From a virus: DNA of 35,281 nt. Both the position numbers and the translations under genes were made by a program. The DNA lies in the IMG/VR virus record IMGVR_UViG_3300032265_000625, positions 1 to 35,281 of that record; one strand, written 5' to 3'. This document shows, one piece after another, positions 3,016 through 32,670 of this stretch (the stretch's first letter is position 1; every line of letters begins with the position of its first letter). Under the pieces are notes generated by a model. It did no database searches, had not been told where the DNA came from, and worked only from the letters and a program-made list of their open reading frames with translations.

Positions 3016-4128
3016 ATGGCAATTACTAATTTAGATAAAGCGAAGGTAGCAATCGTTACCCAGCATCCGTTCTTTGCTAGTCTGTTGATGAAGCGCAAGC
3101 TCATCATAGATAAGACAATACCAACGGCAGGTGTCGATCAGCGTGGGCAGATTTACTATAACCCTGACTTTTTTGACAAGCTCAGTGTCGATGAGATAGT
3201 GTTCGTGCTGTGCCATGAGTTAGGCCATGTAATCGGTCAGCATGCGTCTCGTCGTGGTACTCGCAACGCCAAGAACTGGAACATCGCAGGTGATGCTTGG
3301 ATCAATGACATGCTCAAGGATGCCAATATCGGACAGGCTATCAAGGGATGCGTAGATATGGCTGGGTCTAAGGATCGTACTGTGGATAGTATCTATGACG
3401 AGTTGCCTCCTCCCGAAGACGGAGATGGTCAGGGCCCAGGTGGGACAGGCGATGACTTGCTCGATAGAGGTGATCCTGTAAGCCCTGAAGAAGCTGACCG
3501 TATCGATGCAGAGATACGAGTTGAGGTAGCACAAGCGGCGCAAGCCGCGAAGATGCAAGGCAAGATGTCAACGGCACTGGCTGATCTAGTGGCTGAGTTG
3601 ATCGATGTCAAGACACCATGGTATGACATACTAGAACGCTACATGGTATCGTTTGCCCAAGGGGAATATACATGGAGTCGCCCTAACAAGCGGTTTGATG
3701 TGTATCTGCCAAGCATAGGGAAATCCCCTACCATGGGTGAGGTGGTTATACAGGTGGATGTATCGGGTTCAATCAACGAGACCGAACTAAAGTATTACAA
3801 CGGACATCTTGCTCGCATCATGGAGTTAGCAGATCCAGAGAAGGTGCATGTCTTGTACACAGATACATCAGTGTGTAAGCATATTGTGTTTGAACGCGGG
3901 GAAGAAGTAGTATTGCAGTTCTATTCAGGCGGTGGCACTGACATGGAAGAAGGGTTCGAGTATCTTGCTAGGGAGGGTGTTGAGCCTGAGGTTTTCATCT
4001 GTCTCACAGACGGGTATACTGACTTCAATATGGAGAAAGCACCTCCGTATCCAGTCGTATGGTGTATCAGTTCGGAAATTACTGCACCATATGGTGAGAA
4101 CATCCACTTTGAAATGGAATACGCATGA
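3016..4128 (+). CDS. Zincin metallopeptidase-VWA-like fusion protein
   Basis: 370-residue protein with two domains. The N-terminal part is a putative metallopeptidase: HELGH at residues 67-71 (catalytic Glu68), then a further His and the WNIAGDAWIND block, which fits PF13203. An acidic, Gly-rich linker (around residues 130-160) leads to the C-terminal VWA-like domain (PF09967, formerly DUF2201), whose metal-binding motif DVSGS sits at residues 248-252, followed by GGGTDMEEGF and a FICLTDGYTD block. Family knowledge: such proteins are encoded beside MoxR ATPases and probably act with them. A GGAG-type site lies 6 bases before the ATG. Whether the peptidase is active and what it cuts cannot be told from sequence. 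Confidence 0.9.
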   Translation: MAITNLDKAKVAIVTQHPFFASLLMKRKLIIDKTIPTAGVDQRGQIYYNPDFFDKLSVDEIVFVLCHELGHVIGQHASRRGTRNAKNWNIAGDAWINDMLKDANIGQAIKGCVDMAGSKDRTVDSIYDELPPPEDGDGQGPGGTGDDLLDRGDPVSPEEADRIDAEIRVEVAQAAQAAKMQGKMSTALADLVAELIDVKTPWYDILERYMVSFAQGEYTWSRPNKRFDVYLPSIGKSPTMGEVVIQVDVSGSINETELKYYNGHLARIMELADPEKVHVLYTDTSVCKHIVFERGEEVVLQFYSGGGTDMEEGFEYLAREGVEPEVFICLTDGYTDFNMEKAPPYPVVWCISSEITAPYGENIHFEMEYA

Positions 4129-17726: not shown

Positions 17727-17972
17727 TTAGCAATTCCAAGCTTTAAGCGATTTATTAATCCGACTGTTCGGGTCTTTCGCTGTCTTTGTAGAGGTTAGCT
17801 TTTCTTTCATTCCAGTCATTCGCGCACAGAATGAGTCTTTCCTCGAGCCGCCCTCGGGTTGGGGAGGCTTTAAATTCATCCCCTCCTTCTTTGCGGATGC
17901 CCGACCCTTGGCGTTTAGACCGCCGTTCGGATTCTTCCCTTCTTTGCGTTGCCATGCAGGTGTACTTGCCAT
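17727..17972 (-). CDS. Lysine-rich small protein, 81 aa
   Basis: AGGAAG lies about 8 bases before the ATG. The start AWQRKEGKNPNGGLNAKGRA is a well-known pattern in phage proteins of this size, followed by SRKDSFCARMTGMKEKL and a basic end. No function is established to my knowledge. It ends one base before the next small gene and is separated by two bases from the preceding one, so the four basic genes form one block. It shares the motif AKGRA/AKGEF with the neighbour at 17474. Confidence 0.75.
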   Translation of the reverse strand: MASTPAWQRKEGKNPNGGLNAKGRASAKKEGMNLKPPQPEGGSRKDSFCARMTGMKEKLTSTKTAKDPNSRINKSLKAWNC

Positions 17973-18582: not shown

Positions 18583-21500
18583 TTACTCCGTGGGTTGAGG
18601 GAAACGCAAACCAAGCTTTTGTGCAAATGGGTCTTGCCCTTTTTGAAGTTGAACCTTTTGCCATGCGCGAGCTTTTGACTCGGCTTCATCAGTTGCTTTG
18701 TTTGCTAATATACCATTTAGTTCAGCTTTGGTAAGCGTTGGAGAAATCAAAGGGTAACTTCCTTTTTCATTATCTGCTGATAATTCGCTAGACACGCCAC
18801 CTTGAAATTTGTTTGGCAGGATGCCAAAATAGCCACTACCTTTAGCCGTTACTGGGTCGCTAGGCGATGTTATCCATCTAGTGCCGTATGGTGCGGCCGA
18901 TCCTTGAATTCCTACAACTGGATCAGCTTCATAAGATACCTCACCACCATCAGCAAAACCAGTTAAGTTTTCAACATATTTCTTATTGCTCTTGTTGTAT
19001 TGAATACCTTCTAGGGTATGTTTTTCTCTTTGATGTTGCGACTGAGCGGACTTAAACAAAGCGTCCATTCCTGATCTCTTAAACCCAAGTTCGTGTTTCT
19101 TATCTTGCAAAGCTTTCCATTTGCTTCTAATCTCTTGTGTATCTTCGCCATTTTTTCTAGCTTCTAAGAACTCTTGACGAATGGCAGATTCACGATCTTT
19201 AAAGTGTTGTTCAGTTTCATATTTGATTGTGCCGCGTTCCTGTTGCAACGATTTCTTAGTTGTGCTTAAACCAAGCGCAGTTGCGGCAGTATCAAATGTA
19301 CTGATATCTTCAGCCGACATGGTTGTATCATTATTGCGATTTGACATACCTTCCGTTTGCTCGCGGTAAGCTTTCATGCCATTAGCAATACCATTTGGCA
19401 GTAGTTGTTCAATACCTTTTTGATATTCCCCCCGACCTATTAATCCCAAGCCGTCAAACACGCGAGCACCCAAAGCCCCAGGAGCCCCAAAAGCCAAGCC
19501 TCCAGCTATTTCGTAAAATCCTTTACGAGAAAAATCAATATCCGAATAAGGAGCAATAGATAGTACATTACCCATGCCTAATTTAGATGATAAATCCAAC
19601 CCAGCCAAATTAGGCGCTCCGCGCAAAAGCACATTAGCGGTATCTTCATCCCCAATCATTTTGCGTAACTCTTCTTCTAAATCAAACGGCTCATCATCGG
19701 GCTCTTGCCATAATCTTGCCAAATGTTTAAGCATGAATGCTAGCGCCGCAAACCCAGGAAGGCCGACTGCCCCTGCCATAACTGCTGTATGACCAAGAGT
19801 AAAAGCTAACGCTTTTCTAGCTCCCCATTTGATTTCAGAACTTTCTCCTTTAACAGAGTTGTATACCAGTTTGGTAAGCAGAGTAGCTTGAATCAATTGA
19901 AACTTACGAAATTGCAACGCCACTTTGCCAAGGCTAGTATTAAATGCTCTAGGCGCATTGATTGCAGTGTAATCTCCGTGCGTGCGTTCTAGAATTGAAT
20001 CGGCGTATTCCAATGCTTTAGCCGCATCGTTTGTTTTGGCAAACTCCATGCGGTATGCAGTAATGGCTGTCGTTGCTCGATTAATAGCTTCCACTTTCTC
20101 AGAAGCCGTACGAATAATTCGGTCAATTTTATTTAAACCCCGACTTACAATATGTTCAGGATCAAGTCGAACACGACCAAGCTCAGCGTCCATCGAAATT
20201 TGAATACGACCGCGATCTGCCAAAGTCTTTAACATTTCACGCACATCAGCAGGGAACTTATCAAAGTTAATTTCTCCATCTGTTTTGGCAGTCTTAAATA
20301 AAGCACTGATTTCAGAATAAGATTTAACTAGAGTTGTAGCCACTTTAGCGTAGTTGTGACGTTCGGTCATAACTGGCAACGACAACATGAATGGCTGTGT
20401 CAAGTTTTGCAAATAGTACATTGGAGATGTAGCCAACATCCAAATAGAAGTAGCCCGATTAATCAGGGATGTCCAAGGATGTTGGTTGTACTCCATGGAT
20501 TCGCCATGGCGTTGTAAAATTTCATTTAAAGTCTTGGATGCCTCATGTTGCGAATCAGGCGCAAGAGCTTTTAATTGCTTACGCATTTTGTTAAGCGTAA
20601 GATTGGTTGCTGTATTGTATTTAGCAGCGGCCATGAAGTGTGCATCCGCACGAGCTTGCGTGGAGAAAGACCGTAACATATCGATGTTACCTGCAATGCC
20701 TTTTCTTCTAAGTTCAGACTTCCTTGCACTGTTCTCTGCCAGCGACGTTAAGAACATATCCGTTACCATCTCTTGGGTTTTACGGATTGATGCTCGCTCT
20801 GCGGCATCTTTGGTATTGTTTAGTTCAGAATCCAACGCACCACGTAGCTTATTGAGGGCATCCATCGTGCCGCCAAACAAACCATGACGGTCAGATTCTT
20901 TTTGTCTTGAGTAGACTGTATTGTAAGTTTTTGAGTCTTTTAGCTCACGCACCATCTTTAGCGCATCGGCTTCAGTTTCCGCAAAATCTACAAAGTAGTG
21001 GTCTTCATTTGATTCAAGTGCCGCACGTTCTTTAGCAGTTTTAGCATTCTCATACTCGGCTGATTTTGCCACGACAGCATACTGACCATAACGTTTTAGA
21101 GGCGCGTAAGGAACACCTTCGTTCAAAGAAAAAATACGTCCGTATTCTTTAAGACGAGTAGCTTTGGCAGACTGCAAACTCGCAACACGTTTTAAGTCGT
21201 TGTCTGTTTTTGCTGAATCAATCAACGCATCAAATTCTAAATTAGCGCTATCGGTTACTAAATTTTTCTTTTGCTGGAGCATCATATGCCCATGCTTTAG
21301 AGTTTCAGTAATCCAAACCTTAGATTCAGGAGATAGGTTTTTCCAACGGCTTTTCATTACCGAATCAAGCGGCACTTGCTGTGTCAACCATGAAGGTTGA
21401 AAACCCCATTTTTTCAAACGTGTGGAGTCAAGCAAAAATTGGTTAGCGCTATTTGGGCCACGACCTTGTTCTTCCGCAGGTATGTTAGATGCTAGATCAA

Positions 21501-24500
21501 TAACTTTATTAGCCTGACGTTCAACTTTTCCCATGAGTGCTGAACGTTGTTGATAGATGTGGGTCAGTTCTCTGGCAGAAGCTAGGCCCTGACTAACTGC
21601 ACGCTTAAGTACATCCGATGTAAATGCAATAAGATTGATCGCAGTATTGGCCGCCCCCGTAACCGACTTGCCAATTACTTCTGCTTGAGCTGAGTTGAAG
21701 ACGTTTTGGGCTGCGCTTTGGGAGGCAAGGCGTTCTTGGCCGCGTCCTCTGAGTCCGTTAGGATTGACGACGACTTTACTGCCCGTGCTGGCGTTACGAT
21801 TACGGAATGCAAGGGAGCGCTTTGCTGAAGTTGTTTGAGTCTGGAGTTGAAGCGATTTTGTAGATTTGACATGTTTAATTACCTCATCGAGAAAAGCGGC
21901 AGTTTTAGGAGCCAAGCGCCGCATAACTTCTTGGACTTTTGGATTAGCGTAGGCGCTGAAAGCTTGAGCAAACGCTTCACCTTCTACGACTACATGGCTA
22001 ACAATACTAGGAAACTTAGCTGTATCAAAAGGATACTCTAAATACTCATTCCATGCTTGCTTAGTCAAGTATAAGTTATGTAACTCTCGGGCAACTTCAC
22101 CGACTGGAGTAATCACTCCATCTTTCAAGCCAAAGCTCATCTCGGGCTGAGAAGAATATACACCGCCATGAGGAGCCATATCAAAAGCATGGGCAACTTC
22201 ATGGGTTACAGTTTCTGCCGCATGGTCAGAGTTTGTTAGCTTAGCTTCATTCAGCGTAATGGTATAGCGACCGCCAGCCGTAGAAATTTCTCCATTGATA
22301 GCATTTTTAGAGGTATCATTTATGGTCTTCCAGTCGGATACAAAATCTAAAGTGTGTTCAATACCAAGGTCTTCTAACTGACCAATACCAACTGCTACTC
22401 CATCAAATTCATCGGATAGTTCTCCAGCATCATGAAAAGATTTACTGCGAGATTCAAAACCTACGTTACCATTTAACGCTTCAGTGTTATCTGTTTTTTC
22501 TTGATGGTTTTCTTCAACTTCTTCTCCCTCTTCGACCTTAGATTTTTTATTTTTTGGCGTTTCTTTAGCCTTAGCTTCTGCTTCAGCTTTATCCGCTTTA
22601 GCTTTAGCTTCTTTTGCTTTCAAGTGAGTTTCATAACTCTTAACCGCTTTAACAAGTTTGGTTTGAAGATTTTCTATTTGTTCCGTCAAGTCCACACCTG
22701 TAGATGCGGCTGTTTCTTGCAATTCTTCAATTTGATTCATCAAAGAACTTATCGCATTAGCTTTTGCTTCATCTGTCGCATTTGTTGTGTCGCCAATACC
22801 TTCTTTAGCATTGCCTTGCTTCCACAAATCGTTTTCAACATCAAAGCCAGAGTTTTCGCCTTCGGTATTAGCCATGCCATTTTGGGCTAATGCTTCTGTA
22901 ACTCCGCCTGTTGCCGTACCAAAATTAGTATTTTGGTTATTGCCAATCTCAAAAAGACCGCGAACACTATTTGGGTCAAGCCCCATAGCGACTGCCGCGT
23001 CAACAAGTGCAGTTGTATCCCCAATTTTTTGTACAGCTTTTACACCAATACCAAACTGTTGCCCAATTCGAGCCGTGACCAAACCTTTTGACCCGTGCGG
23101 AGCATTTTTTAATGCTTCAATATACGCCGTTGCAATTGCTATATCACGCTGTGGGGTTTTAGATTTAGAAAATCGAGCTTTTAAAATATCGGCAAGGGTA
23201 TCGGCTCTATGTTGTTCAGTTTCTTCTAATCGTTGCCCAGAATCTTCTTGGTTTTGAGCTTCTAATTCGGTTGCATTGCCTGTTGCTTGGGCAGCAGCAA
23301 GTTGATCTTCAGCACTAAGCCCAGGATGCGTTTGAGTAGGAGCTGCCTCCGTGCTTACTTGGGGGACTGCTGCAGCAGGTGCTACGAATGCTTGTACAGG
23401 AGCTAATGTTGATGCAAGCACACGACGTTTACGTGAAACAACTGGCTCAGTAGAAACGGGTGTAGTTAGATCGGCAGTTGGTTGACTGGTTTGGTTTGAA
23501 AGAAGAGAAACTTCCGCATTTGGGGCAAGAGTATTGACGGGAGCTCGACTAGCTCCCCCTTCGACAAGAGAAGTTGATCCTGTAGAAGCCACGCCTCCCG
23601 CAGTGTCAACGCGTTGGCTTGGAATGCTTGATTTAGAGACAACTGGAGTTCTAGCTGGTGTGCTGACATTGGCTTCCCCTACATTTGGAGTGGCTTGAGT
23701 GGCTTCGCTTGCTTTAGTTGAAATTTGTTGTTTTTGCTTAGCGGCATGTTCTTTTTCAATCAAATCTAAAACTTTAGCAACCGCACCGTATTTTGAAGCA
23801 TTAAGTTGTTCGATAGATTGGTCAAACTGAGACTGGTCTATAAGACCTAAGTGCTTCATGTCTACCAATCGATTAAAATTATCAAGGCGTTTAGCATTCT
23901 TACTGGGTTTTAAACCAGCAGCTGCAGCTTCTGCATCGCCATGATCCGCTTGTAACGCAGTTAAAGCTTCTTTGCTATCGGGGTCGCCCATATCAGCGGC
24001 TTCGCCCATAGTCAATTCACGCTCTATGCCATTTTCGTCATTAACAAACCTACCTGAAGGCTCATTCATCGCTGCCACAATATCGGCTTGACGTTTAGCA
24101 TGAGCTTTTGCAGCGATGTCTTTGGAAACATCTTGCTTTACGTTTAGTTGTTGATTAATCCAATCTTGCAAAGGAACATTAGGATTATTTACATTGACAC
24201 TTGGGTTTCCCGCATTGTCATCAGAAGTTTGGTCTTGGTCAGGATTCAGTAAGTTAGAAGGAGCGCTATTTCTTCTCCATCCGCCCATAACACCAGCACC
24301 AACACCTCCCAAAAGACCACCACCAATGGCAGATTCTTTGTATCGCTGGAGAGCCTCAGGGTCTGTAAAGGTAGCGTTGGGGTCAACAGCCATACGACCA
24401 GCCTGATTGATTACCTCTTGGCCAGTTTCACCTAAAGCTTCTTCTGCTCCACCCTTACCAGCCGCAACGGCCATACGAGCAAGACCGCCTTTGATCCCTT

Positions 24501-25194
24501 TTAGGTCATCAAGAGCTTGAACACCAGAACGAATAAACCCACGCCCGCCAACTGCGCCTTCAAGGCCCAGAGCGTTCAAAGCAGCATAGGGAATACCTAA
24601 GGCAGCAGCAGACCCTAAATCGGCCTTACCGCCCGTTTGTTCGCGTTGGTTTTGAATGATGTCGCCGACGCTAGATGGATAGCTGGCCGCTACAGAACCA
24701 GCTAATTGACCACGCCCAAGAGTTTTAGCAAGAGCCGCAGCCTCTTCAGCCTTACCCGCTGAACGCGCCGCAGTAAGAGCCGCACGAGTACCGCCCATCA
24801 AAGCCCTAGCACCTAAGCCACCAGCTAATGATTCTGCAAGGTATGGAGCCGACTGAATACCAAGCCCAGCAATATAATTAGCTAGATCACCAGCCCCATT
24901 AACATCTTTCCAATTTTCAATCGCCCCTTGTTGAACAGCGGATTCAGAAGCACGAGCAGCTTCAGCTTCATTTTGAATTCTTTGTTCTTCAAGCCAATCA
25001 CGAGCTTTTTCAGCGCCAAATTTATCTGCAATTTCTTGAGCTGTGCCGTAAAGATTTGCTTGATAAGAATCAATTGAAGCGGATAATCTATTTCTAGTTT
25101 GGCCACGTTTTGCATTTGGATCAACAAAACCTAAAGATGGCGCAGCCGAAGACGTAAATAAAGACGGCGTTGAATCTGAAATATAAATAGGCAT
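18583..25194 (-). CDS. Giant internal virion protein with embedded zinc metallopeptidase, 2203 aa
   Basis: Largest gene of the window. Features in order: Gly/Ala-rich hydrophobic stretches at about residues 105-180 and 270-310, of the kind that could insert into membranes; a Pro/Thr/Ala-rich linker at about 470-700; a Lys/Glu coiled region near 850-920; a zincin-like domain with HEVAH (His998, Glu999, His1002); a long helical part with the phage motif YAPLKRYGQYAV near 1370; a hydrophobic segment near 1800; FADGGEV near 2080; and a terminal SYPLISPTLTKAEL block near 2150. The size and multi-domain plan match phage polyvalent or T7 gp16-like ejected proteins. Likely roles are DNA ejection and modification of the cell envelope or host proteins. 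The catalytic activity is inferred from the motif. Confidence 0.85.
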   Translation of the reverse strand: MPIYISDSTPSLFTSSAAPSLGFVDPNAKRGQTRNRLSASIDSYQANLYGTAQEIADKFGAEKARDWLEEQRIQNEAEAARASESAVQQGAIENWKDVNGAGDLANYIAGLGIQSAPYLAESLAGGLGARALMGGTRAALTAARSAGKAEEAAALAKTLGRGQLAGSVAASYPSSVGDIIQNQREQTGGKADLGSAAALGIPYAALNALGLEGAVGGRGFIRSGVQALDDLKGIKGGLARMAVAAGKGGAEEALGETGQEVINQAGRMAVDPNATFTDPEALQRYKESAIGGGLLGGVGAGVMGGWRRNSAPSNLLNPDQDQTSDDNAGNPSVNVNNPNVPLQDWINQQLNVKQDVSKDIAAKAHAKRQADIVAAMNEPSGRFVNDENGIERELTMGEAADMGDPDSKEALTALQADHGDAEAAAAGLKPSKNAKRLDNFNRLVDMKHLGLIDQSQFDQSIEQLNASKYGAVAKVLDLIEKEHAAKQKQQISTKASEATQATPNVGEANVSTPARTPVVSKSSIPSQRVDTAGGVASTGSTSLVEGGASRAPVNTLAPNAEVSLLSNQTSQPTADLTTPVSTEPVVSRKRRVLASTLAPVQAFVAPAAAVPQVSTEAAPTQTHPGLSAEDQLAAAQATGNATELEAQNQEDSGQRLEETEQHRADTLADILKARFSKSKTPQRDIAIATAYIEALKNAPHGSKGLVTARIGQQFGIGVKAVQKIGDTTALVDAAVAMGLDPNSVRGLFEIGNNQNTNFGTATGGVTEALAQNGMANTEGENSGFDVENDLWKQGNAKEGIGDTTNATDEAKANAISSLMNQIEELQETAASTGVDLTEQIENLQTKLVKAVKSYETHLKAKEAKAKADKAEAEAKAKETPKNKKSKVEEGEEVEENHQEKTDNTEALNGNVGFESRSKSFHDAGELSDEFDGVAVGIGQLEDLGIEHTLDFVSDWKTINDTSKNAINGEISTAGGRYTITLNEAKLTNSDHAAETVTHEVAHAFDMAPHGGVYSSQPEMSFGLKDGVITPVGEVARELHNLYLTKQAWNEYLEYPFDTAKFPSIVSHVVVEGEAFAQAFSAYANPKVQEVMRRLAPKTAAFLDEVIKHVKSTKSLQLQTQTTSAKRSLAFRNRNASTGSKVVVNPNGLRGRGQERLASQSAAQNVFNSAQAEVIGKSVTGAANTAINLIAFTSDVLKRAVSQGLASARELTHIYQQRSALMGKVERQANKVIDLASNIPAEEQGRGPNSANQFLLDSTRLKKWGFQPSWLTQQVPLDSVMKSRWKNLSPESKVWITETLKHGHMMLQQKKNLVTDSANLEFDALIDSAKTDNDLKRVASLQSAKATRLKEYGRIFSLNEGVPYAPLKRYGQYAVVAKSAEYENAKTAKERAALESNEDHYFVDFAETEADALKMVRELKDSKTYNTVYSRQKESDRHGLFGGTMDALNKLRGALDSELNNTKDAAERASIRKTQEMVTDMFLTSLAENSARKSELRRKGIAGNIDMLRSFSTQARADAHFMAAAKYNTATNLTLNKMRKQLKALAPDSQHEASKTLNEILQRHGESMEYNQHPWTSLINRATSIWMLATSPMYYLQNLTQPFMLSLPVMTERHNYAKVATTLVKSYSEISALFKTAKTDGEINFDKFPADVREMLKTLADRGRIQISMDAELGRVRLDPEHIVSRGLNKIDRIIRTASEKVEAINRATTAITAYRMEFAKTNDAAKALEYADSILERTHGDYTAINAPRAFNTSLGKVALQFRKFQLIQATLLTKLVYNSVKGESSEIKWGARKALAFTLGHTAVMAGAVGLPGFAALAFMLKHLARLWQEPDDEPFDLEEELRKMIGDEDTANVLLRGAPNLAGLDLSSKLGMGNVLSIAPYSDIDFSRKGFYEIAGGLAFGAPGALGARVFDGLGLIGRGEYQKGIEQLLPNGIANGMKAYREQTEGMSNRNNDTTMSAEDISTFDTAATALGLSTTKKSLQQERGTIKYETEQHFKDRESAIRQEFLEARKNGEDTQEIRSKWKALQDKKHELGFKRSGMDALFKSAQSQHQREKHTLEGIQYNKSNKKYVENLTGFADGGEVSYEADPVVGIQGSAAPYGTRWITSPSDPVTAKGSGYFGILPNKFQGGVSSELSADNEKGSYPLISPTLTKAELNGILANKATDEAESKARAWQKVQLQKGQDPFAQKLGLRFPQPTE

Positions 25195-25195
25195 A

Positions 25196-26494
25196 TTACT
25201 TAGCCTGTTTTGTCAAAAACTCATCAATTAACAATTGGGGCGGAATGCCTTTACTTATAGCTTGTTGCACAAAAGGAGATTTTAAAAACACGGCTTGGTT
25301 TCCTTTTGAAAGGGCCGCTTCGTTTTGTAATTTTGTATGGTCTTGAGGATTAAGTTCAAAATGGCCGTTTTCTTTTTGGTGTTGGTCAACCAAATGCTCA
25401 AATTTATTAACGGTGACAGGCGACGTTGTTCCTGTTTCGGCATCGTGAACCATAACAGTGTTTAGCGCTTTTCCGCTTGGGTGAACAGCTAAGAGACTAG
25501 CTGTTTTTCTTAATTCCTTGGGTGGAGTATTTGGATCACTCAACTGTTTTTGAAATGTATCAGCCAAATCCGCAAACGAAGTTAATTCTTTTAGCTGAGC
25601 TTCCTGTAGCTGATTCATCATTCCATGCGCGCTTCGAGCAATTTCTGCGGCTCTAATATGAGCGGCATTTGCAGCTTGAGAAATTTGTTGGTAAACTCCG
25701 CCTTCTTTATGAAAGTTAGATTGAGTTTCAGCATTCATCATTCCAGCGTCAGCAGCTTTTTCTTGAGCTCCAACTTTTCTTCCTTCCATTGTTGCAGTCT
25801 GAGCTTTCCAATAATCTTCATTGCTTACACTGCCAAGTTTGTGCATTATTTGAGTATTCAATGCCCGAGCTGCAACTTCTCTGGCTTGATCTGGGGTTAC
25901 TTCATGAGACTCAAGCAATTTGTTATTGTTGTCCAAAACATGATATAAACGACTGCCATTAGGTAAAATTTCACTTTGAGTTACTTTTTGGCCATCAGGA
26001 ACTTTGGCATTATAGTAAGTAGTACCGTGGGTATCTCCCCACGCAAAAGGGTCGTTCTGAAGTTGCGCAAATTGAGATTTGTGTTCAGCTAAAATGGCAT
26101 TACGTTCAGCTTCTTTCCCTAGCGCCGAGGCGTTTTGTTGTAACTGAAGACCCAAAGCTTTATTCTTTGGATCGGTGGAATTTAGGTACACACGAGCTTG
26201 GTCTGCAAGAATATCTTGCGTTGGTCGAGCGACGGGAGCCGTAGCCCCTGGCATTACGTTACCGTTGTCGTCTGCCCAAATACGGCTACCATTAACTCCA
26301 GCCCCCTGAGTAGTAGTTTGAATGCCCTTTAGAGCAGTGTTTGTAGCATCCTGATCCGCCCAAGCTTGACGCATACGATCCTGCTGTTCCTTTTGAAACT
26401 TCTGTTGCTCCTGTTGATTGAGCGCGTTTAAGCCTTGGGTTACACCTTGACCGATACCGCCTAAAGCTGGCGCTATGGATGACAGAAAGCTCAT
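25196..26494 (-). CDS. Putative internal virion protein, 432 aa
   Basis: Helical, Gln/Ala/Asn-rich protein with a hydrophobic, glycine-containing start (MSFLSSIAPALGGIGQGVTQ) and a coiled segment around residues 26-46. The remainder is rich in polar helices. AAGGAG is placed well before the ATG. It lies one base upstream of the giant gene, in the position T7-like phages use for internal core proteins (gp14, gp15). No enzymatic motif visible. The family assignment is by position and composition, so a different internal or scaffold role remains possible. Confidence 0.7.
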   Translation of the reverse strand: MSFLSSIAPALGGIGQGVTQGLNALNQQEQQKFQKEQQDRMRQAWADQDATNTALKGIQTTTQGAGVNGSRIWADDNGNVMPGATAPVARPTQDILADQARVYLNSTDPKNKALGLQLQQNASALGKEAERNAILAEHKSQFAQLQNDPFAWGDTHGTTYYNAKVPDGQKVTQSEILPNGSRLYHVLDNNNKLLESHEVTPDQAREVAARALNTQIMHKLGSVSNEDYWKAQTATMEGRKVGAQEKAADAGMMNAETQSNFHKEGGVYQQISQAANAAHIRAAEIARSAHGMMNQLQEAQLKELTSFADLADTFQKQLSDPNTPPKELRKTASLLAVHPSGKALNTVMVHDAETGTTSPVTVNKFEHLVDQHQKENGHFELNPQDHTKLQNEAALSKGNQAVFLKSPFVQQAISKGIPPQLLIDEFLTKQAK

Positions 26495-26504
26495 GGATTA
26501 CTCC

Positions 26505-26774
26505 TTAGATTTTGATTTCTACGTCGTCAAGAACGTCGGTAGAAGATTTAACTTTTTTGGCTTTAGGTGTGTCTGTAACTGTGGCAATTTCTTCAACAGT
26601 AGGCGCAACATCAGGAATCAAATCATTTTCCAGTGCCAAACCTAGCGCATTCAAATACGGACGACCATCAGCACCGACTTCGCTAACGTATTGTTTTTTG
26701 CCATCAACAACTGCGATCAAGTGACCGCCAACAACTTCACCGCCAATTTTTTCTGCTAGTTCATAAATATTCAT
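26505..26774 (-). CDS. Hypothetical protein, 89 aa
   Basis: The N-terminal half is compact (IYELAEKIGGEVVGGHLIAV, then DGRPYLNALGLAL), followed by a Val/Thr/Lys-rich tail ending DDVEIKI. TAGGAG lies about 9 bases upstream of the ATG, which overlaps the previous stop (ATGA). Not recognised. Placement between two putative internal virion proteins suggests a virion or assembly role. Confidence 0.65.
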   Translation of the reverse strand: MNIYELAEKIGGEVVGGHLIAVVDGKKQYVSEVGADGRPYLNALGLALENDLIPDVAPTVEEIATVTDTPKAKKVKSSTDVLDDVEIKI

Positions 26775-28006
26775 GCGTGACTCCTAATGCCTAAATGTTT
26801 TTCAAATTCAAGACCTTCTTGCCTCATCTTTTCCAGCTTATCCAAGCCGTACTTTTTTACTGTGCCGACTGGCATAATAAACTCTCCGTTGGAGAGCATT
26901 GCTGGAATTAAGTCATCTTTGGGGCCACCTGGGCCATGGACTGGGCCTCCAGGAATACCATTTTTTGGATGGTTTGACATTGGGTGAATGCTACCGCCGT
27001 TAGCGGCAAACATAGCTAGATCTAAAAGTTCGGGAGCAACAGCCGCAGAGGCTTCTTCAGCCGCAGGCGCAGCAGCAGCCGCAGGCACACCAAAATTTCC
27101 AATTGTGCCGTAATCTCCCATACCAGCGTCAAGAGCTGCATTGCCATTCATTCCAGCCAATGCTTTATCAACTTGAGTTTTAGCTAGTTTGCTAGCCAAA
27201 GCGTATCCTTGAATCCCATTAGTTAAAAGAGCTTGCCCTTCAGATGGGCCAGCCGATGCGGGTTGCGCTGGAGGTTGAATGTTATTCATTGCCCCAACAA
27301 TACCTTTTGTTTGCCCGCCCATCGCATATCCTGTAGGAGCTTGAGCCATGCCGCCATTGGCAAAAGGAGATACAAAACCACCGCCTTCAAAACGTCTAAC
27401 AACACCGCCATCAGCGGAAAAAATTGTAGAAGCCCAATTCTTAACCGCATTACCAGCTCCTGTGCCAGATAACGCAATACCAGCTCCTGTTAGGCTTCCC
27501 CAATTTTGCGCGGAAGTAGCATTAGCTTGATTATTTAATGATCCTGCCTGCGACATGGCATTTCCAGCAGAATTAGCAGCAGACGTAGCTTGACCAGGTA
27601 GGCCAAGGCCCATACTTACAATATCAGAGTTCATTGCGTAAGCTTTATCGCTCATCTGATTTCTACCAGCAGTTATACCACCAGCTCCTGTGGCAAATGC
27701 GTTATTGGCCATTTCAGATTTTGCGCGAATCGAAGCAGGATTACTTGGGTCTATGCCGTAAGACGCAAGATTTTTATCAAGGTTGTTAATGCCAGCATTA
27801 AATTGCGTTTGGTAGTCAGCTTCAGCTTGCCCCGCAACTTTATTTTTATTGGCTATAGAACCGTAATCGGCGGCTTGTTGACGAAGCTGACCTAAGTCTG
27901 CAAACGTTTTTCCAGATTCACCTTGAAGCTGCTTGCTACTGGCAACCTGTTGGTTATAGAGGTCTTCAAGACCTTGATAGTATTGACTGCCGCCGCCTCC
28001 ACCCAT
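26771..28006 (-). CDS. Putative internal virion protein, 411 aa, Gly/Ala-rich
   Basis: Starts with MGGGGGSQYYQGLEDLYNQQ, a known style of phage internal proteins, and continues as a helical Ala/Asn/Gly-rich chain to about residue 190. A flexible Gly-rich middle follows (FEGGGFVSPFANGGMAQ), then an Ala run (about residue 315). The C-terminal block GPGGPKDDLIPAMLSNGEFI is a recurrent motif (GGxxDxxPAxLSxGEF) at the ends of phage virion proteins. AGGAG precedes the ATG. It overlaps the next gene by four bases. The role in the particle is inferred. Confidence 0.75.
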   Translation of the reverse strand: MGGGGGSQYYQGLEDLYNQQVASSKQLQGESGKTFADLGQLRQQAADYGSIANKNKVAGQAEADYQTQFNAGINNLDKNLASYGIDPSNPASIRAKSEMANNAFATGAGGITAGRNQMSDKAYAMNSDIVSMGLGLPGQATSAANSAGNAMSQAGSLNNQANATSAQNWGSLTGAGIALSGTGAGNAVKNWASTIFSADGGVVRRFEGGGFVSPFANGGMAQAPTGYAMGGQTKGIVGAMNNIQPPAQPASAGPSEGQALLTNGIQGYALASKLAKTQVDKALAGMNGNAALDAGMGDYGTIGNFGVPAAAAAPAAEEASAAVAPELLDLAMFAANGGSIHPMSNHPKNGIPGGPVHGPGGPKDDLIPAMLSNGEFIMPVGTVKKYGLDKLEKMRQEGLEFEKHLGIRSHA

Positions 28007-28007
28007 A

Positions 28008-28439
28008 TTATGCTCCTATTGGTCTTTCGACCACTGTGTAAATCGATACCGCTTCTGGGGTAACCCACCGCGCGTACCTTTGCATCGATGGCCGAACGGC
28101 CGCTCTGATGGAAGATGCACCCAAAAACCGAGCTAATTTTTCAACTTCAGACCAGCATGAGTCCATAACCACGTTAAATCCTCTACCGCCCATGGCCAAT
28201 ACATGCAAAACCTTTTTTCGAGGATAGCTTAAAATTTGGAAAACAATAACCAAATCCATGTCTGTGTTATCGCTCATGACTGTGACAAAAGCTTCTTCTC
28301 GCTTTATCATGTCTGGAATATCCGAAATAAAAAACTCTCCTTGAGAAAAGTCTTCTGCGGCTAAAAGTTTACTACTCATTTGAGGCCACAATTCCTCAAA
28401 TTCCGTTGGCAAAATAACACGAAGGTGTGGCGCTCCCAT
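28008..28439 (-). CDS. GNAT-like fold protein, 143 aa
   Basis: Has the strand-helix order of a GNAT acetyltransferase: a loop with EAFVTVMSDN, paired strands DLVIVFQILSYP and KVLHVLAMGGRGF, then a helix (WSEVEKLARFLGASSIRAAV) and a late RYARW block. The usual acetyl-CoA binding loop (Q/RxxGxG/A) is not clear; MGGRGF is the nearest. Such proteins occur among structural genes of several podoviruses. Enzyme activity is uncertain, and it may be a degenerate acetyltransferase in virion assembly. The start has only a weak site. Confidence 0.6.
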   Translation of the reverse strand: MGAPHLRVILPTEFEELWPQMSSKLLAAEDFSQGEFFISDIPDMIKREEAFVTVMSDNTDMDLVIVFQILSYPRKKVLHVLAMGGRGFNVVMDSCWSEVEKLARFLGASSIRAAVRPSMQRYARWVTPEAVSIYTVVERPIGA

Positions 28440-28693: not shown

Positions 28694-30590
28694 TTTTGTT
28701 CTCCAAAAGTGTTACTTTAATATCCAATTCTTGAACGGCTTTTGTTAGAGCCGCCACGATACCTTCTGTTCCCACAGCTTTTAAACCTTTTAAAAGTCCT
28801 GCCTCATCGGCATGTGTGTATACTATACTAGATTCTTTTCCGCCTGTCGCAACCATAACATCATCGGCAATAAACCCATACATTAATTTATCAAATGTCA
28901 TCAAAGTCGTATTCCAATTATAAGTAACTGGTTTTAATGACCGAACAAATTCAAGACCCAAATCTATTGGTTGAATATTTGTTTTTAAAGAGCGATCTGA
29001 AATTTGGTAAATATTAATGTTTGTACCAGAACTTGAAATGCCAACTCCAGGGAAACTGGCTGTTAAAGTTAAATAACCAGTCAACCCATTTAGAGAATTT
29101 ACTACTGAGACTGGCGTCCAACCACCGCCTGATAAAAAATAGCTAGAACTAGGAGCACTGCCAATAAGTTGGCTTTGAGTAATAGACCCAGAATATGTAC
29201 TTGCCGATCCAGCACTACTCGCATAAGCAACGCTTCCACTCGAAGAGACAGGGGTAAACCCTAATGCTCCAGTAACATCTCCACTGCTTAAAGTAACAGC
29301 ACCTACTCTAGTATTAAAACTAGAAACCCCAGCAGTAATACCACTAATTGGATACCAACTTCCATCACCAGCTAAAAAATAAGTGTTGGAGTTGGGTGGT
29401 GTCGCAATCCGAACGCCGTTATGATTAAAAAACCCAGAGATATAAAGCGCCGTTCCAGAAACGCTAGTTGCATTTATTGCAATGCCTGCTGCTGAATCAT
29501 ACGCACTTAAGCCAATTCCTCCAGCGGTAACACCATAAACAGAAACCCCACCAGAAGTTGTATATGCTTTTATTGCAGTGCTAAAAAGACCACCGCCATC
29601 GACTACTAACCCATAAATTGTAGAAGACCCATTTATGTAAGCTACCGTGTTTGAGCTAGAGCTACCACCATATATAAAGCCAGTGCCCGATAAACTAAAA
29701 TGTCCTGAACTCGTTATATCGCCAGAAAATGTACCAGATGCTCCAGTAATATCGCCTTTAAAAATCGCTGCGCCAGTTGTAGCATCTATAGAAAACGTAG
29801 GTGTTCCTGAATTAAGCCCAACAATACCACGGCTAGTAATGGCAACGCCAGAACCAGAAGCTACACCAGAACTGTTTACAGAAATACTTCCCGTAGCAAA
29901 AGCCCCAGCACCTGTAAGATTAATAGTACCGCTAAGAACGTCAGACGCAGATTTGTTTAATTTAGTTGCGGCGGCTGCAATAGCCGCAGAAGCGTTTGAA
30001 TTCGCTGTACTTATATTTCCTAAAACCGTGCTAACAGTATCGGAACCAAGGTAAGCACCAACTTGAATAATAGAATTAGCTTTGATTGTTCCAAGAACAT
30101 TTAAGTTACCAGTGGCCGTATCAATAGTGATACTAGAAACCCAGTTACCCGTGGAAGGGTCGTTATATCCCCCAACAATACCTGTGGAAAGTAAGCCAAG
30201 CGCTGTTCGTACAGTTCCAGTATAAGCTCCAGTAGACCCAAGTGGAATTGCATTTTTATTTTGAAAAAGAATGTAATTTAGCCCCGTCTTCATAATGTTG
30301 TCAGACGTATTGCCATTTGAAATAATGCTGGCTGCACCTGTTTCTAAATCTTGGGTTAATCTAGCACGAGTATAGGCAGGGGCAAGTGGAGGCATGTTAA
30401 CACTGCTGTTAATATTTCCGTAGGTATTTCCAACAGTCGTAGAAACCGCTGTGCTACTTGCTGTAACGCTGGCTTTGGTTGCAAAAGTGTTAATAGCAAT
30501 TTGAATATTTTGAGACAACGCATCTAATGCTGCCCGAGCTTGCGGATCAGAAACAGCATTAGTTGGAGGAATGGGCAAAAAATTAGCCAT
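28686..30590 (-). CDS. Tail fibre/spike with C-terminal S74 chaperone domain, 634 aa
   Basis: Receptor-binding fibre. The N-terminal region (residues 1-170) is helical and then reads TATGNLNVLGTIKANSIIQV, as in phage central fibre and tail-tip proteins. The shaft is Gly/Ser/Thr-rich and beta-structured, with the fibre motifs GDGSWYPI and FNTRVGAVTLSSGDVTGALG. The last 104 residues are a peptidase S74 intramolecular chaperone: SDRSLKTNI starts at Ser531, the expected self-cleavage position, and a final coiled coil (LTKAVQELDIKVTLLENK) would drive trimerisation. Family knowledge: the domain folds the trimer, then cuts itself off. Confidence 0.9.
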   Translation of the reverse strand: MANFLPIPPTNAVSDPQARAALDALSQNIQIAINTFATKASVTASSTAVSTTVGNTYGNINSSVNMPPLAPAYTRARLTQDLETGAASIISNGNTSDNIMKTGLNYILFQNKNAIPLGSTGAYTGTVRTALGLLSTGIVGGYNDPSTGNWVSSITIDTATGNLNVLGTIKANSIIQVGAYLGSDTVSTVLGNISTANSNASAAIAAAATKLNKSASDVLSGTINLTGAGAFATGSISVNSSGVASGSGVAITSRGIVGLNSGTPTFSIDATTGAAIFKGDITGASGTFSGDITSSGHFSLSGTGFIYGGSSSSNTVAYINGSSTIYGLVVDGGGLFSTAIKAYTTSGGVSVYGVTAGGIGLSAYDSAAGIAINATSVSGTALYISGFFNHNGVRIATPPNSNTYFLAGDGSWYPISGITAGVSSFNTRVGAVTLSSGDVTGALGFTPVSSSGSVAYASSAGSASTYSGSITQSQLIGSAPSSSYFLSGGGWTPVSVVNSLNGLTGYLTLTASFPGVGISSSGTNINIYQISDRSLKTNIQPIDLGLEFVRSLKPVTYNWNTTLMTFDKLMYGFIADDVMVATGGKESSIVYTHADEAGLLKGLKAVGTEGIVAALTKAVQELDIKVTLLENKNA

Positions 30591-32670
30591 TTTTTAATTC
30601 GCTCATATCAGTTGCCATTGCTACGTACTGAATTAAATTTTGAGATTGGAGACGAATTGACCAACGCAACGCTGACCCAGGAAGAACAGTAGCTCCGTTT
30701 AAACCTTTTGATGGAAGGCGGTAGTACCCTGTACCAGAAGCAGTAAATGTATAGTATTGGTTTCCATCTGCGTACAAAATAACTGTTACGGATGATGTTG
30801 AACGAATGTGCATAGCACCAAAAGATGTATACCCTGGAAAAACAAAATCTTTGCTCCACCAATCAAGGGTATAGTACCCATCATTTCTAAATCTATAAAT
30901 GTACGCGCCCTGGGAATAATACAACGTGTCTTGCAGTGGCATGTAAAACATGTCGTCGTACTGCTCATTAAATTGCGTATATGTCCCTGCTGCCTCATCC
31001 AAACGAATAACAAATCCAAGAGCAGATGCACTATCAACTAAAACCAAAAATCCATCATGGTAAGCCATCTTAGCTGTGCTTGGGGATGTCAAAATACTTG
31101 AATAGCGATTACGCCAATCTTCTCTGGAGAAAAGTTGTTGGCTCATAGTTAAAGAAGCGGTTGATCCATTGACTGTAATAAGGCCATCTTGAGTTGCAAA
31201 CGCAACCGCCCCATCAATATTGATCATTAGTTTGGGATCAATCCCAGCCTGAGGAATTGGCAATTTATGCTGTTGCATATTGGTAGGCGTACTACCCATA
31301 ACAATGTATGACCCAGAATTAGTTGTTACTACCAGCGCTTGAGCTGTAACACAAATTCCTCTAATGTTGTAAGGAAACGTTTGCGAGTATGGCCAAGCGT
31401 GGGGTCTAAATGGTTCACTGAAATAAAGAGTATTTCCGTAAAACGCCGCAAAAATTCCATTTGGCATTGCTACCAAATTTTGCATTGGATACGGGGGAAC
31501 ATAAAATTGTTGTGAGATTAAAGCTGTACCCGCACTTGAAACTTTAAAACTGGTATCTAAAAATTGAAGTGTTCCTGTAATTGTTGAAGTCTGAGTTTGA
31601 ACATCAAAAGTTGAACCTGTACCCACAGTTAACTGAAGATAAGTTGTGCCAGTGCCAAAGGTTCTATAGACATTAATACCGCTATAAGGAACATAACCTG
31701 TAAATAAAGATCCAGATGTAGGATCAGTAATGTTAATTTGAACTTCCTGCATGTACGTTACATCAATAACGTTTGCACCGCCTGGAGCAGATTCTTCATT
31801 TACATAATTATAAAATGTGTAATCATATGCCCTTGTTTCCATTGTTCCCCAAATAAAAGTCAAACTGCCAGTATTGGTCAAGGAGACTTCTACGCCACCA
31901 GGAAAAGCACGACTTGTCGTTGGGTTTGTTGCACCCCCAGAAACAATTACATTAAAGTATTCCGCGTGAGGAGTTACACTTTCATCATAAAGAATAATTT
32001 GGCAAACCAAATTTGCTGCGGGGTTAGTACCTGTGCCAATCCCACTTCCAGCGGTAGTAGTTACATCTCCAGTTACGCCATCGGTCACAGTTGTGGAAGT
32101 ATCATTAGGTACCCAAGTAACTTTGGCAGGTGGAGTAAATGTGTATTGTTTAAATGCAATAACCCCAGTTAATGTAACAGTAGCTTTACCAGTTTGATTA
32201 CCACTTGCGTCTTCCCACCAAGCCGTTGCAACAATGCTTGAATTTGGATAATCAGGAATTATTGTGCGTTCAATAACTTTAAGTTGAATTTGATTTGGAG
32301 GTTGCGGCACACCCACTTTCGCTGAGGCAGAAGGCGGCCCACCAGAAGGAGTTGCTGTGGAATAATCGGCTACTTGCAAACCCGCAGAATTTTGAAAATA
32401 AACTCGATGGTAGGATTGCGCTACAACAGGACTTCTGTAAGCGTACGTCTCTGTTGTCCACGTAAAGAAATTTGTTCCTTCTTCGGTGTAAAGCCCTTTA
32501 ACGGGACTTGGAAAAGGTGTGGAATTAACAACTGTGCCTAACTTTAAAGGCCGTAAATCTTTTTGCGCATAGTCGCACCAAAGCGATTGCTGAGCGTTTT
32601 CTTGTGGCAACAAATAAGGAGGCAGATTAGGGATTTCCCCTGAGAATGCTTTAAGCGTTACAACTGTCAT
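30583..32670 (-). CDS. Putative tail nozzle-like beta-propeller virion protein, 695 aa
   Basis: Large, beta-rich protein. The start (SGEIPNLPPYLLPQENAQQS, then LRPLKLG) matches a recurring opening of phage tail proteins. The middle has fibronectin-like strands with many Thr and Val (residues about 130-260). The last half has repeated strands with GSYIVMGST and FSREDWRNRYS, a pattern I associate with T7 gp12-like nozzle proteins built as beta-propellers. I place it as a tail tube or nozzle component with moderate certainty. It overlaps the fibre gene by eight bases and follows the endolysin by two bases. No catalytic residues evident. Confidence 0.7.
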   Translation of the reverse strand: MTVVTLKAFSGEIPNLPPYLLPQENAQQSLWCDYAQKDLRPLKLGTVVNSTPFPSPVKGLYTEEGTNFFTWTTETYAYRSPVVAQSYHRVYFQNSAGLQVADYSTATPSGGPPSASAKVGVPQPPNQIQLKVIERTIIPDYPNSSIVATAWWEDASGNQTGKATVTLTGVIAFKQYTFTPPAKVTWVPNDTSTTVTDGVTGDVTTTAGSGIGTGTNPAANLVCQIILYDESVTPHAEYFNVIVSGGATNPTTSRAFPGGVEVSLTNTGSLTFIWGTMETRAYDYTFYNYVNEESAPGGANVIDVTYMQEVQINITDPTSGSLFTGYVPYSGINVYRTFGTGTTYLQLTVGTGSTFDVQTQTSTITGTLQFLDTSFKVSSAGTALISQQFYVPPYPMQNLVAMPNGIFAAFYGNTLYFSEPFRPHAWPYSQTFPYNIRGICVTAQALVVTTNSGSYIVMGSTPTNMQQHKLPIPQAGIDPKLMINIDGAVAFATQDGLITVNGSTASLTMSQQLFSREDWRNRYSSILTSPSTAKMAYHDGFLVLVDSASALGFVIRLDEAAGTYTQFNEQYDDMFYMPLQDTLYYSQGAYIYRFRNDGYYTLDWWSKDFVFPGYTSFGAMHIRSTSSVTVILYADGNQYYTFTASGTGYYRLPSKGLNGATVLPGSALRWSIRLQSQNLIQYVAMATDMSELKNG

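What the first reader, a model, noticed from the sequence alone, without database searches (positions are those of the whole stretch)
18583..25194. 2203-residue virion protein carrying an HExxH protease domain
A single gene covers a fifth of the window and joins membrane-like segments, low-complexity linkers, a HEVAH zincin and several conserved phage blocks. If ejected with the DNA, the peptidase could act on envelope or host proteins at the start of infection. Polyvalent virion proteins of this kind are known, but the domain combination looks distinctive.
Basis: partly seen in the sequence, partly recalled or inferred. Interest (0 to 1): 0.6.

Follow-up and report, generated by a model that had tools for sequence, protein, structure and literature searches.

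The report
Giant phage protein with swappable protease
This is a very large phage protein, probably carried in the virus particle, that contains a convincing zinc-protease domain in a spot where related phages swap in other domains; the general kind is already known, but the swapping between close relatives is a useful new clue that it may act on the bacterial host.

Summary
The ORF is real: 2203 codons on the MINUS strand (18583-25194). Residues 1362-2060 are an NCBIfam PLxRFG domain (310 bits, cutoff 100). The HEVAH motif (998-1002) lies in a zincin domain: the AlphaFold model (res 915-1149) has a confident core and matches the lethal-factor/PPEP peptidase fold (Z 11.8), and H998, E999, H1002, D1005 and E1073 are invariant in ten copies averaging 34% identity. 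Such metallopeptidases in phage 'polyvalent proteins' were described in 2017, so the kind is known. Virion location is inferred: the gene ends a late module partly homologous to that of Burkholderia phage JC1, whose giant protein is virion-associated by mass spectrometry, but JC1's protein does not match PLxRFG. New here: the segment just before PLxRFG is exchangeable. A contig (L048) 97% identical over PLxRFG carries a zincin only 28% identical; another near-identical pair swaps this zincin for an LPD23 HExxH domain, a third swaps LPD23 for a segment without HExxH. This leans towards a host-directed effector over an obligatory maturation protease, without proving it. No activity, substrate, packaging or ejection was shown.

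The parts
18583..25194 (-). Giant ORF, 2203 aa (residue r starts at base 25194-3(r-1))
24262..24897 (-). Gly/Ala-rich N-terminal region, residues 100-311; weakly hydrophobic, conserved with nearest relative L020
22465..22686 (-). Lys/Ala/Glu-rich low-complexity linker, residues 837-910
21805..22452 (-). Zincin (lethal-factor/PPEP-like fold) domain, residues 915-1130
22189..22203 (-). HEVAH motif, residues 998-1002
21976..21978 (-). Glu1073, invariant, inferred third zinc ligand
   Evidence: fold match
21707..22598 (-). Segment replaced in near-identical contig L048 (covers linker end, zincin, and the start of the link to PLxRFG)
19015..21111 (-). PLxRFG / tail-700 domain (NF032893), residues 1362-2060
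   Evidence: relatives
19726..19788 (-). Hydrophobic segment inside PLxRFG, residues 1803-1823
25196..26494 (-). Upstream 432-aa gene, in the position of the ~477-582 aa gene before the giant gene in relatives; no family match
26771..28006 (-). Upstream 411-aa gene; matches JC1 gp64 (virion-associated) and a PHROG virion structural protein
28008..28439 (-). 143-aa gene in the position of the acetyltransferase gene of JC1 (gp63); no Pfam match
30583..32670 (-). 695-aa gene, phrog_511 internal virion protein; homologue of JC1 head-closure protein gp61

Best explanation
A PLxRFG-type polyvalent phage protein, most likely packaged in the head of a short-tailed phage and ejected with the DNA. The conserved N-terminal and PLxRFG parts serve packaging and passage through the envelope; the segment just before PLxRFG carries an exchangeable cassette, here an active zinc metallopeptidase (ligands His998, His1002, Glu1073; general base Glu999) that cuts host proteins early in infection. 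Shown: the ORF, the PLxRFG domain, a predicted zincin fold, invariance of the catalytic residues, and replacement of the cassette between close relatives. Inferred: zinc binding and activity, packaging, ejection, what PLxRFG does, and a host rather than self substrate.
For: Fold: model core pLDDT 80-97 in ten-residue blocks; best solved matches are catalytic domains of lethal factor (Z 11.8) and PPEP-2 (Z 10.9), above the typical best of 7-8 for models without a clear match. Conservation: H998, E999, H1002, D1005, E1073 invariant in ten sequences of mean identity 34%; dN 0.035, dS 0.88 for one pair, L035/L039. The Asp three residues after HExxH matches an MPTase type described for phage polyvalent proteins in PMC5512222. 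PLxRFG. Virion: homologues of JC1 gp61 and gp64, both virion proteins, in the same order, with JC1's giant gp69 found by 51 peptides. Host-directed: L048 versus window, 97.0% aa over 1170-2078 but 28.1% over the zincin, with 93% nt identity on both sides; L036/L037 swap this zincin type for an LPD23 HExxH domain with PLxRFG 99.3% identical, L045/L046 swap an LPD23-like domain for a segment with no HExxH at 97%. Precedent: the giant RNA polymerase gp71 of phage DEV is proposed to be an ejection protein (PMC10925440).
Against: No virion, activity or substrate data for this phage. JC1 gp69 does not match PLxRFG, so the proteomics transfers by position and neighbours, not by this domain. Two of the three swaps keep an HExxH domain, which would also fit a need for some peptidase. 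The exchanged segment includes linkers where self-cleavage sites could lie. The PLxRFG model was unusable (pLDDT 58, pTM 0.34), so no function can be read from its fold. L048 is one 4-kb metagenome-bin contig and could be an assembly chimera.
Confidence: 0.5

Rival explanations
1. Self-processing peptidase: the zincin cuts its own polypeptide in linkers, before packaging or after ejection, to free its parts.
For: Proposed for MPTases in polyvalent proteins; P1 DdrB is processed before packaging (PMC5512222). The domain sits between a long low-complexity linker and PLxRFG, and the exchanged segment takes linkers with it.
Against: Three of 24 compared giant proteins (L041, L046, L047) have no HExxH in the sequence held, one of them 97% identical over PLxRFG to a protein that has one, so a zincin is not obligatory. 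N4 virion RNA polymerase is packaged uncut. Only one recognised catalytic domain is present here to be freed.
Confidence: 0.3
2. Catalytically dead or purely structural zincin fold, kept for binding or packaging.
For: The region of N4 virion RNA polymerase that includes its MPTase domain is needed for encapsidation. The catalytic Tyr seven residues before the third ligand in PPEP/lethal factor (own knowledge) is Ser1066 here.
Against: All metal-ligand positions and the general base are invariant across ten divergent copies, and stay in the replacing zincin of L048. Invariant Tyr1054 could replace the missing Tyr (inference).
Confidence: 0.1
3. Late morphogenesis protease or antirestriction (DarB-like) protein that acts in the producing cell and is not ejected.
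For: PHROG annotation 'DarB-like antirestriction' for the C-terminal match; gene lies in the late module.
Against: No SNF2 helicase or methylase domain in this protein, and the PHROG match covers only the C-terminal part of a mosaic family. The giant protein of JC1, in the same place, is in the virion.
Confidence: 0.07

Closest known systems
Phage polyvalent proteins with zincin-like MPTase (Iyer et al. 2017, PMC5512222)
   Same: Very large phage protein next to virion genes, zincin with HExxH and Asp three residues on, linked to further domains.
   Different: Only one recognised catalytic domain here; no Pfam LPD match in this protein; replacement of the zincin between close relatives was found here.
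PLxRFG domain proteins (NCBIfam NF032893), e.g. Pseudomonas phage Epa33, Klebsiella phage vB_KpnP_ZX1
   Same: C-terminal ~700-aa domain (window and Epa33 above the curated cutoff; ZX1 by its record's annotation and tblastn).
   Different: Named phage proteins aligned here are only 21-28% identical over it and longer than this one, several annotated as methylase or helicase; no close relative in the phage collection.
Lethal-factor C-terminal domain and Pro-Pro endopeptidases (peptidase family M34)
   Same: Predicted fold, HExxH, Glu on a following helix.
   Different: Below Pfam ATLF gathering score; the catalytic Tyr at Glu-7 is not at that position; extra conserved GxYS block after HExxH. 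No toxin role is implied.
Giant ejected virion RNA polymerase of N4/DEV
   Same: Giant polypeptide proposed to be ejected with the genome; N4-type also carries an MPTase.
   Different: No RNA polymerase domain found here.

Membership tests
PLxRFG domain proteins (NF032893) | Score above NCBI's curated cutoff | tested here: met
   310.4 bits, cutoff 100, residues 1362-2060
Polyvalent proteins | Several unlike domains in one large polypeptide | tested here: met
   zincin plus PLxRFG plus conserved N-terminus; only one recognised enzyme
Polyvalent proteins | Encoded with phage virion/packaging genes | tested here: met
   internal virion protein, structural protein and tail-fibre matches upstream; terminase and portal not seen in this 35-kb fragment
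Polyvalent proteins | Delivered into the host with the DNA | not testable with these tools
   needs virion proteomics and an ejection assay
Zincin-like MPTase superfamily | HExxH on one helix, Glu on a following helix, zincin fold | tested here: met
   (predicted structure)
Peptidase M34 / ATLF | Pfam ATLF gathering score | tested here: not met
   no ATLF match at E 1 in this protein; relatives 17-23 bits, cutoff 27.4
Peptidase M34 / ATLF | Catalytic Tyr seven residues before the third ligand (spacing from own knowledge; Tyr178 mutants of PPEP-1 in PDB titles) | tested here: not met
   Ser1066 here; Tyr1054 is invariant instead
DarB-like antirestriction | SNF2 ATPase and adenine methylase domains | tested here: not met
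   none found in this protein

The most novel reading that the evidence does not exclude
PLxRFG proteins form a virion-borne polymorphic effector system: a conserved ejected carrier with one exchangeable cassette (ATLF-like zincin, LPD23 HExxH domain, possibly ADP-ribosyltransferase) placed just before PLxRFG and replaced by recombination, matching phage to host.
Probability: 0.35. Interest if true: 0.7.

Novelty: new member of a known kind. Interest (0 to 1): 0.5.

Why it matters
If right, comparing phages that differ mainly in this cassette gives a direct genetic test of what ejected phage metallopeptidases do, a question left open when polyvalent proteins were defined. It would also mark a simple place to look for new ejected effectors: the segment before PLxRFG.

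Tried and rejected
Searching the zincin alone against isolated phages, viral contigs as a single sequence and bacterial genomes found nothing; the alignment route worked. My guess of a helix-turn-helix upstream of the zincin is supported for L022, L024 and L025 but not for the window (E 7.5). JC1 gp69 as a PLxRFG homologue: rejected. H1009 as third ligand (conserved in the nearest relatives): rejected, since L030 and L036 lack it. PLxRFG structure: model too poor to search. The sequence match of the zincin profile to lethal factor (E 7e-6) lies on the N-terminal copy of that fold, not the catalytic one (own knowledge of that protein), so I rely on the structural alignment for the catalytic match. 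The dN/dS lines printed came from a failed anchor and are discarded; one search replaces them, and there the zincin dS is saturated and gives no ratio. Searches failed because of wrong strand or frame. No shared DNA motif at the exchange junctions was evident by eye, and no free-standing copy of this zincin type was found in 13 loci.

Full report
WHAT IS THERE. The gene is on the minus strand, 18583-25194, 2203 codons, no internal stop. The record is a 35,281-base virus contig, probably a fragment. The start codon lies one base after the stop of the 432-aa gene upstream.

DOMAINS. Residues 1362-2060 match NCBIfam NF032893, PLxRFG, at 310 bits against a cutoff of 100; PHROG matches, one labelled DarB-like, cover the same part. 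Pfam gives nothing above threshold, only a weak SprT hint at 974-1004. The N-terminus (28-311) is 50% identical to that of L020. Only 1803-1823 looks like a membrane helix.

THE ZINCIN. Relatives found through alignments share the domain at 30-48% identity. A model from six sequences has mean pLDDT 79, low at the ends and 80-97 over the core. Structural alignment puts it on the catalytic domain of lethal factor (Z 11.8, rmsd 3.1-3.6 over about 150 residues) and on Pro-Pro endopeptidases (Z 9-11). Plain Foldseek was weaker, with no PDB hit at E 0.001, but gave one strong viral hit, a 44%-identical uncultured-phage protein. Across ten copies, mean identity 34%, H998, E999, H1002, D1005 and E1073 never change. 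H1009 does change, so E1073 is the likely third ligand. The catalytic Tyr expected seven residues before it is Ser1066; Tyr1054 is invariant and might substitute (inference).

CONTEXT. Upstream lie homologues of JC1 gp61 (E 5e-37) and gp64 (E 9e-9), with a 143-aa gene where JC1 has an acetyltransferase. In JC1 (PMC9144972) gp61, gp64, gp68 and the giant gp69 were found in CsCl-purified particles, gp69 with 51 unique peptides. gp69 is a giant protein in the same place but does not match PLxRFG. Virion location is therefore likely, not shown.

THE EXCHANGEABLE SEGMENT. I compared 24 giant proteins (two contigs appear twice) in 13 clusters at 90% PLxRFG identity. Twenty-one carry HExxH, usually 181-239 residues before the PLxRFG profile start (327 in L037). 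The motif belongs to this zincin type in 14 and to an LPD23-like domain in L032-L034, L037, L038, L040 and L045 (LPD23 checked with Pfam for L032 and L037 only; the rest by motif). It is missing in L041 (weak ART-PolyVal hint, E 0.006), L046 and L047. Within near-identical pairs the segment differs: L036/L037, PLxRFG 99.3%; L045/L046, 97%. In L036/L037 the DNA is also 98% identical over the first 1473 bases, so the divergent middle there is larger than the zincin. L037 and L038 are independent contigs, 98.8% identical in full, which argues against a chimera for that form. Closest to the window, L048 is 97.0% identical over 1170-2078 and 93% at DNA level over residues 828-866, but 28.1% over the zincin, which is a different zincin of the same type (E 8e-30). 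Point mutation cannot give this; recombination or, for L048 alone, misassembly can.

INTERPRETATION. Replacement of the cassette while its carrier stays the same is what one expects of an effector whose target differs between hosts. A maturation protease acting on the conserved carrier would not be expected to vanish in some relatives. The argument is not decisive: self-cleavage sites may travel with the cassette, and two of the three swaps keep an HExxH domain. I put the host-directed reading at 0.5 and self-processing at 0.3.

KNOWN OR NEW. MPTases are the commonest domain of polyvalent proteins, and both self-processing and host targeting were proposed in 2017 (PMC5512222). The same paper raises cassette recombination for a kinase locus. 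This protein is a new member of that kind. The exchange evidence is what I would add; I did not find it described, within a library that lacks most subscription papers.

LIMITS. Relatives come from pattern-based scans of metagenome contigs, not a complete census, so the tallies describe what was fetched; some contigs are cut off. dN/dS rests on one pair. The number of exchanges was not counted on a tree.

Noticed in passing
3016-4128, with 1109-2104: A DUF2201 putative metallopeptidase/VWA gene (second HExxH-type protein of this phage, Pfam 160 bits) near a MoxR-like AAA ATPase gene: an ATPase/VWA pair in a phage.
   Followed up: no
17727-17972 (-): DUF6321 gene next to the giant gene; homologues sit at the same place in L020 and L021.
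   Followed up: partly
L022, L024, L025: A sigma-70 region 4-like HTH stretch lies upstream of the zincin in these relatives, and L020 has a PcrA/UvrD tudor-like stretch; not detected in the window.
   Followed up: partly
L041, L046, L047: Segment before PLxRFG lacks HExxH: a weak ART-PolyVal hint in L041 and a shared unidentified stretch in L046 and L047.
   Followed up: partly
L048: Contig 97% identical to the window's PLxRFG region was binned into an uncultured Silvanigrella MAG; a possible host hint, but binning of phage contigs is unreliable.
   Followed up: no
L021, big protein about residues 1390-1530: By eye an L,D-transpeptidase-like SxGC motif; Pfam did not report it.
   Followed up: no
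18586-18960 (-) and 26771-28006 (-): The C-terminal tail of the giant protein (2079-2203), missing in the five relatives aligned, shares a 'FADGG'-like motif with the 411-aa gene.
   Followed up: no
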